A stretch of 64,000 nucleotides of DNA from Ilyonectria destructans (Eukaryota; Ascomycota; Sordariomycetes; Hypocreales; Nectriaceae). The notes under the pieces were generated by a model. It searched no databases. It was not told where the DNA came from and was given only the letters and a program-made list of their open reading frames with translations. Positions 56,864 through 57,400 of this stretch are shown piece after piece (the stretch's first letter is position 1; each line of letters begins with the position of its first letter). The stretch is from NCBI GenBank assembly GCA_020740775.1, contig JAHEWK010000044.1:62001-126000 (forward strand). The letters run 5' to 3'. The translations under genes and the position numbers were made by a program.

Positions 56864-57400
56864 ATGCCAGAAGGATCACGCCGTTCCAGAGGCCGTATGG
56901 CCGCAAACCGCCGGTCAAGCTTTAGCTACGTCCAAGGTGAGCGTCTCCTATTCTTTAAGGAAGATTAATCATTTATACATATTCACGATGCATTCAGCTG
57001 GAGATCCCGTTCCCGTCCGTGCAAAGCGGCGCCTTCGTCCAGGTACCAAAGCCCTGAGAGAGATTAGGAAATGGCAAAAATCTGTGGAACTGCTGCTTCT
57101 CAAAATGCCCTTCTCTCGGATTGTGCGTAATAAATTCCTTCAAAGGTGTTTTATTGAATCCAGCACAGCTAAACTTTAAAACAGGTTCGAGAAATTGCCA
57201 TCATATTTCGTCCCAGGGGGGAGTCTCTACGATGGCAAACCCAAGCCATCCAGGCTCTGCAGGAGGCCGCCGAAGCTTATCTAATCCATATTTTCGAAGA
57301 TACTAACCTATGTGCTATTCATGCAAAAAGAGTCACCATCATGCCAAAGGATATGCAACTTGCGAGGAGAATCCGCGGTATTCAGTGGGGGTTGGGCTAG
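56864..57400 (+). CDS. Centromeric histone H3 variant (CenH3 / CENP-A), three exons
   Basis: Exons 56864-56936, 56998-57122 and 57185-57400 join over introns of 61 nt (GTGAGC to TTCAG) and 62 nt (GTGCGT to ACAG) into an uninterrupted 137-residue histone. The short basic tail (MPEGSRRSRGRMAANRRSS) leads to AGDPVPVRAKRRLRPGTKAL, the usual fungal CenH3 lead-in. The histone fold follows (IRKWQKSVELLLLKMPFSR, VREIAIIFRPRGESLRWQ, AIQALQEAAEAYLIHIFEDT, NLCAIHAKRVTIMPKDMQLA). Diagnostic of CenH3 rather than H3 are the extended loop 1 (RPRGESLRWQ, with Trp where H3 has Phe) and the ending RGIQWGLG. CenH3 replaces H3 in centromeric nucleosomes and recruits the kinetochore. The sequence seems divergent from typical Hypocreales CenH3, so it is probably a second gene, but only the rest of the genome can tell. 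Confidence 0.9.

What the first reader, a model, noticed from the sequence alone, without database searches (positions are those of the whole stretch)
56864..57400. Intact, divergent CenH3 (CENP-A) gene in transposon-rich DNA
Three exons splice in phase into a complete 137-residue centromeric histone with the extended loop 1, the Trp in LRWQ and a WGLG ending. Fungi normally carry a single, strongly conserved CenH3. A divergent copy among decayed duplicates suggests an extra gene acquired with, or serving, accessory DNA. Reported accessory chromosomes with their own putative histone genes (in Metarhizium) make a role in chromosome establishment or transmission plausible.
Basis: partly seen in the sequence, partly recalled or inferred. 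Interest (0 to 1): 0.92.

Follow-up and report, generated by a model that had tools for sequence, protein, structure and literature searches.

The report
Second centromere histone gene in fungus
A root-infecting fungus carries, besides its normal centromere histone gene, a second old and intact one in transposon-rich DNA near a possible centromere, which would let biologists test whether extra chromosome material helps to build its own centromere.

Summary
Confirmed: window 56864-57400 encodes an intact CenH3 (137 aa, three exons). The window lies on contig C39 (203,197 bp) of a 71.7-Mb assembly, identified as Ilyonectria destructans by a database protein identical over 82% of the query. A second CenH3 (130 aa, same exon 2 and 3 lengths) lies on a 2.4-Mb contig, so this is an extra gene. 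It is not a recent copy: third codon positions differ at 73 of 113 codons, second at 13, and grouping with the Ilyonectria/Dactylonectria core genes is rejected (p=0.007). It forms a clade (98/92) with single genes from Thelonectria olida and Mariannaea, also on smaller contigs; the three share two residues found in 0 of 113 other listed CenH3-like proteins. Ilyonectria robusta and two Dactylonectria appear in the hit lists only with core-type proteins. C39 holds transposons and a 30-kb block of 24% GC starting 8.6 kb from the gene, a candidate centromere. Scm3 and CENP-C each have one locus, elsewhere. Best reading: an old, constrained, patchily held CenH3 lineage in accessory-type DNA, loaded by shared machinery and helping keep that DNA. 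Expression, localisation and accessory status are inferred. Nearest parallel: plant B-chromosome CENH3 variants.

The parts
56864..56936 (+). CenH3-B exon 1 (24 codons + 1 base; basic N-tail)
   Evidence: V-Q|AGDPVP junction shared with core and T. olida proteins; not in the deposited model
56937..56997 (+). intron 1 (61 nt, GTGAGC...CAG); holds the ATG of the deposited 116-aa model at about 56988
56998..57122 (+). CenH3-B exon 2 (125 nt, same length as in the core gene)
57123..57184 (+). intron 2 (62 nt)
57185..57400 (+). CenH3-B exon 3 (216 nt with stop, same length as in the core gene): loop 1, LRWQ, QWGLG end
58591..59115 (-). Tc1-like transposase piece downstream of the gene
   Evidence: E 3.3e-6, under Pfam's cut-off
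62221..62946 (+). frame with a patatin match
   Evidence: E 6.1e-6, just under Pfam's cut-off

Best explanation
The gene is an intact second centromeric histone (CenH3-B) that split from the core CenH3 long ago, probably within or near Nectriaceae/Hypocreales, has been kept by purifying selection, and now occurs patchily in a few genera, here in transposon-rich, accessory-type DNA. It most likely makes a working CenH3 that is deposited by the host's single Scm3 chaperone and read by its single CENP-C (roles recalled), entering centromeric chromatin. Its most likely benefit is better kinetochore formation or retention of the DNA that carries it, possibly at the AT-rich block 8.6 kb away. Shown: intact gene, second copy, old divergence, constraint, three-genus clade, patchy hits, AT-rich block, one Scm3 and one CENP-C locus. 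Inferred: expression, deposition, accessory status of C39, the block being a centromere, and the transmission role.
For: Second intact CenH3 beside the core one. Codon-position differences 27/13/73 of 113 codons, pN 0.17, pS 0.83 (saturated): old and constrained. Clade with T. olida P0060 and Mariannaea P0015, support 98/92; M61 and T85 in 3 of 3 B-type and 0 of 113 other listed CenH3-like proteins. Grouping C39 with the Ilyonectria/Dactylonectria core rejected, p 0.007. B-type contigs of 203,197, 127,078 and 488,399 bp against 2.25 and 2.41 Mb for the T. olida and I. destructans core genes; the P0007 cluster has one member, and in the best-120 lists I. robusta, D. estremocensis and D. macrodidyma appear only with core-type proteins. 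AT-rich block C39:128,001-158,000, GC 0.235 against 0.486 for the rest of C39; V. dahliae centromeres are 74-78% AT. Scm3 and CENP-C each match at one locus, on C3 and C6. Precedents: plant B-chromosome CENH3 variants; accessory-chromosome KMT6 copy that can take over in F. oxysporum; histones on a transferred Metarhizium accessory chromosome.
Against: No expression or localisation data. The deposited model is shorter and lacks exon 1. AT-rich DNA is not limited to one place per contig: 2 of 58 sampled points are under 0.2 GC, both on C12 and 300 kb apart, so the block may be ordinary repeat-mutated DNA; at 30 kb it is also much smaller than the >93-kb V. dahliae centromeres. C39 has no telomere repeat and no strain comparison, so it may be a piece of a core chromosome. 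Smaller contigs may only reflect fragmentation. The tail W is shifted in C39 alone, which could weaken CENP-C binding. C39 is a long branch, whose place the tree program calls unsure. The tests did not reject C39 with the T. olida B gene (p 0.264) or with the Thelonectria-Ilyonectria-Dactylonectria core (p 0.231).
Confidence: 0.55

Rival explanations
1. A second CenH3 with a general or stage-specific job (dosage, meiosis or spore formation) at all centromeres, merely sitting in transposon-rich DNA.
For: One Scm3 and one CENP-C locus would have to serve both copies. Paralogous CENH3s with unequal or gamete-specific roles exist in cowpea and Drosophila virilis (abstract starts in the listing).
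Against: Patchy hits among close relatives: I. robusta and two Dactylonectria appear only with core-type proteins in the best-120 lists; smaller-contig location in 3 of 3 species.
Confidence: 0.25
2. A non-functional relic: intact frame by luck, or recent loss of expression.
For: No expression data; shifted C-terminal W unique to C39 among the three B-type proteins; transposon-rich surroundings.
Against: Few second-position against many third-position changes, and 0.034 chance of no stop under crude neutral substitution without indels; splice sites and exon 2 and 3 lengths kept.
Confidence: 0.12
3. Cargo of a Starship giant transposon.
For: NACHT, patatin, ferric-reductase and DUF3723 frames on C39, families recalled, not from a call, as Starship cargo.
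Against: None of the 10 DUF3435 captain matches listed for the genome lies on C39; the contig may be incomplete.
Confidence: 0.05

Closest known systems
Core ascomycete CenH3 (CSE4/hH3v; here the C4 gene, P0022)
   Same: Histone fold, longer loop 1, W-Q, G-rich end, same exon 2 and 3 lengths
   Different: 72% identity over 91% to P0022; M61, T85 and M123; different N-tail; C39 tail QWGLG
B-chromosome CENH3 variants of Sorghum, maize and Aegilops speltoides (PMC12849586, abstract and passages)
   Same: An extra CenH3 encoded by supernumerary chromosomes; changes mapped to the modelled CENP-C interface
   Different: In Sorghum and maize the B variant is nearest to the species' own A copy (in Ae. 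speltoides it is more distant); this one is an old lineage shared by genera, and accessory status here is unproven
Putative histones on the transferred Metarhizium robertsii accessory chromosome (PMC10687773, two passages of a conference abstract)
   Same: Histone and chromatin genes on extra fungal DNA
   Different: The passages do not say CenH3; transfer was reported there, not tested here
Accessory-chromosome KMT6B/C of Fusarium oxysporum Fol4287 (PMC12774646, abstract)
   Same: Accessory copy of a core chromatin gene that can take over part of the core role
   Different: Methyltransferase, not a centromeric histone

Membership tests
CenH3/CENP-A | H3-type histone fold, by sequence | tested here: met
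   PF00125 E 1.1e-21 for exon 3; best solved match a cnp1 entry, 2.1e-43
CenH3/CENP-A | Longer loop 1 than canonical H3 | tested here: met
   3-residue gap in H3 against C39
CenH3/CENP-A | Divergent N-tail unlike canonical H3 | tested here: met
   alignment; the tail depends on the exon 1 model
CenH3/CENP-A | C-terminal W-containing tail | tested here: inconclusive
   W present but shifted by one, QWGLG; RIRGxW in 106 of 113 others
CenH3/CENP-A | Located at centromeres in the cell | not testable with these tools
   needs tagged ChIP-seq
B-type CenH3 clade (defined here) | Groups with T. olida P0060 and Mariannaea P0015 | tested here: met
   98/92 in a 39-row tree; C39 is a long branch
B-type CenH3 clade (defined here) | M61 and T85 | tested here: met
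   3 of 3 B-type, 0 of 113 others
Fungal accessory chromosome | Presence/absence between isolates | not testable with these tools
   one assembly held; core-type-only hits in I. robusta and two Dactylonectria in capped lists are suggestive
Fungal accessory chromosome | Transposon-rich, few housekeeping genes | tested here: inconclusive
   58 of 141 selected frames scanned: 3 reverse transcriptases, 2 hAT, 1 DDE, 1 Helitron, 1 weak Tc1, and no clear single-copy housekeeping gene; the transposon share was not measured or compared
Fungal accessory chromosome | Own telomeres and centromere | tested here: inconclusive
   no telomere repeat on C39; AT-rich block only a candidate
Starship | DUF3435 captain | tested here: not met
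   0 of 10 listed matches on C39

The most novel reading that the evidence does not exclude
C39 is part of an accessory chromosome that encodes its own centromeric histone beside its own centromere: a self-encoded centromere identity, shared as an old, possibly mobile, lineage among Nectriaceae, that gives the chromosome its transmission behaviour.
Probability: 0.22. Interest if true: 0.93.

Novelty: new variant of a known kind. Interest (0 to 1): 0.72.

Why it matters
Why fungal accessory chromosomes segregate oddly is open. One review offers a functional difference in their centromeres as one possible cause of nondisjunction, and notes that in Zymoseptoria tritici core and accessory centromeres cannot be told apart by sequence composition and structure (PMC9508043, passages). 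A natural second CenH3 lineage in accessory-type DNA gives a direct test: tag both proteins in one nucleus and see which centromeres each occupies.

Tried and rejected
Recent within-species duplicate: no other DNA match to 1.2 kb around the gene; grouping with the nearest core genes rejected. A blastn of C4:38-58 kb against C39 found nothing, but it also missed the two CenH3 genes themselves, so it speaks only against recent copies. Contamination: repeats of the AT block match many other contigs at 73-100%. Starship: no captain on C39. Extra Scm3 or CENP-C on C39: none. Link between this gene and the SIR2-like gene of C39 in T. olida: different contigs, 127,078 against 611,399 bp, so no shared cluster shown; the 93% D. 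estremocensis hit fits vertical inheritance too. Inverted repeats in the AT block look like degraded nested transposon copies and were not used as evidence. NCBIfam and solved-structure searches of neighbouring frames gave nothing beyond the SIR2 match. Literature: the listings showed no paper whose title or abstract start reports a second CenH3 in a filamentous fungus or a fungal accessory CenH3. They cover open-licence papers only, and six papers were opened (on seven ids), in passages or abstract, none in full.

Full report
Observation. The three exons at window 56864-56936, 56998-57122 and 57185-57400 splice through GT-AG introns of 61 and 62 nt into a 137-aa protein. Exon 3 alone matches PF00125 at 1.1e-21. 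The best sequence match among solved structures is a cnp1 entry (fission-yeast CenH3, recalled). Loop 1 is three residues longer than in canonical H3 of the same genome, and LRWQ is present. The deposited protein P0007 is 116 aa and begins inside intron 1.

Organism and copy number. The window is C39:62001-126000 of a 71.7-Mb, 74-contig assembly. P0007, named Ilyonectria destructans and lying on a 203,197-bp contig, the length of C39, is identical over 82% of the query. The Pfam histone search gave 17 exon matches. After reading frames these include canonical H3 on C6, a second CenH3 on C4 (130 aa, exon 2 of 125 and exon 3 of 216 nt, as in C39), and this gene. The C4 protein equals P0022, a cluster named from I. 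robusta, and is taken as the core CenH3. The 1.2 kb around the C39 gene has no other DNA match in the genome.

Age and constraint. Over 113 aligned codons C39 and C4 differ at 27 first, 13 second and 73 third positions; pN is 0.17 and pS 0.83, too saturated for a dS. Changes from C4 to C39 are not strongly RIP-like (34 C>T or G>A against 24 T>C or A>G). A crude neutral simulation, substitutions only, left no stop in 3.4% of trials.

Lineage. Two protein searches listed the 120 best hits each. In the profile search T. olida P0060, Mariannaea P0015 and P0007 rank above every other listed fungal CenH3; the records between them are histones of 183-243 aa from plants, animals or a marine microeukaryote. 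A 39-row tree groups the three at 98/92, with C39 flagged as a long branch. Grouping C39 with the Ilyonectria/Dactylonectria core is rejected (p 0.007). B plus Nectriaceae is not rejected (p 0.544), B plus Hypocreales is in the tree at 64/69, and neither C39 with the T. olida B gene (p 0.264) nor C39 with the Thelonectria-Ilyonectria-Dactylonectria core (p 0.231) is rejected. Of 150 listed proteins, 116 passed a CenH3 motif filter; P0007 was replaced by the spliced C39 protein, leaving 113 non-B rows, some from unnamed metagenome sources. M61 and T85 are in 3 of 3 B-type and 0 of 113 others; M123 is also in 3 of 113 others. C39 alone of the B-type has the shifted tail QWGLG. T. olida has both types, the core one on a 2.25-Mb contig. 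I. robusta, D. estremocensis and D. macrodidyma appear in these lists only with core-type proteins, and the P0007 cluster has a single member, so the distribution looks patchy among annotated proteins. Whether Mariannaea also has a core CenH3 was not seen.

Setting. I scanned 58 of 141 selected open frames of C39 with Pfam. They include three reverse transcriptases, two hAT frames, a DDE transposase, a Helitron domain, a weak Tc1-like frame, a NACHT-WD40 pair, DUF3723, ferric-reductase pieces, a weak patatin frame, a SIR2-like frame, a cyclin and an HMG-CoA-reductase-like frame, and no clear single-copy housekeeping gene; many had no match. GC is 0.235 from C39:128,001 to 158,000, against 0.486 for the rest; the block starts 8.6 kb downstream of the gene. 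Such AT-rich blocks mark centromeres in V. dahliae (74-78% AT, more than 93 kb; PMC7482064, passages). But 2 of 58 sampled points elsewhere are as AT-rich, both on C12 and 300 kb apart; 14 of the 58 were placed deliberately around the first of these, and the second came from those 14. The block is therefore a candidate only. C39 holds no telomere repeat (the genome listing passes from C37 to C40). Repeats of the block occur on many other contigs, so C39 belongs to this genome.

Mechanism. Scm3 and CENP-C each match at one locus, on C3 and C6, so the second CenH3 would have to use shared loading and reading proteins. With an intact fold and old constraint, deposition at centromeres is the likeliest activity; a benefit to the DNA that carries it is the likeliest reason for a patchy, smaller-contig distribution. 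That last step is inference.

Comparison. Plant B chromosomes encode CENH3 variants changed at the modelled CENP-C interface (PMC12849586, abstract and passages). An F. oxysporum accessory KMT6 copy can take over part of the core role (PMC12774646, abstract). A transferred Metarhizium accessory chromosome carries putative histones (PMC10687773, passages). The review PMC9508043 (passages) offers different centromere function as one possible cause of odd accessory transmission. None of the listings named under Tried and rejected showed a fungal accessory CenH3.

Noticed in passing
G000 C9:1497461, C15:650017, C20:511464 (L006-L008): A divergent H3-like gene splices in phase into 139 aa (read on the C15 copy); C15 and C20 are 100% identical over all 3,153 bases fetched, and C9 is 99.6% identical to both over 2,016. 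Possibly another accessory histone.
   Followed up: partly
C39:166521-167318 (L029:521-1318): SIR2-like frame with TQNID and LHG strings and a GAGIS stretch just upstream in another frame, on the far side of the AT block; best relative D. estremocensis at 93%.
   Followed up: partly
window 7756-8367: Cyclin frame, 61-64% identical to its three best other copies, on C3, C16 and C14.
   Followed up: partly
window 50990-52171: HMG-CoA-reductase-like frame only 32% identical to the two other copies found in the genome.
   Followed up: no
C39:128000-158000: AT-rich block with many degraded inverted repeats of 100-1,613 nt, 68-95% alike.
   Followed up: partly
window 42488-43585 and C39:173231-174313: Two frames with weak DUF4097 matches, under Pfam's cut-off, lie on either side of the AT block.
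   Followed up: no
C4:1-14000: The contig with the core CenH3 (at 46 kb) also begins in AT-rich DNA, GC 0.11-0.28 per kb.
   Followed up: no
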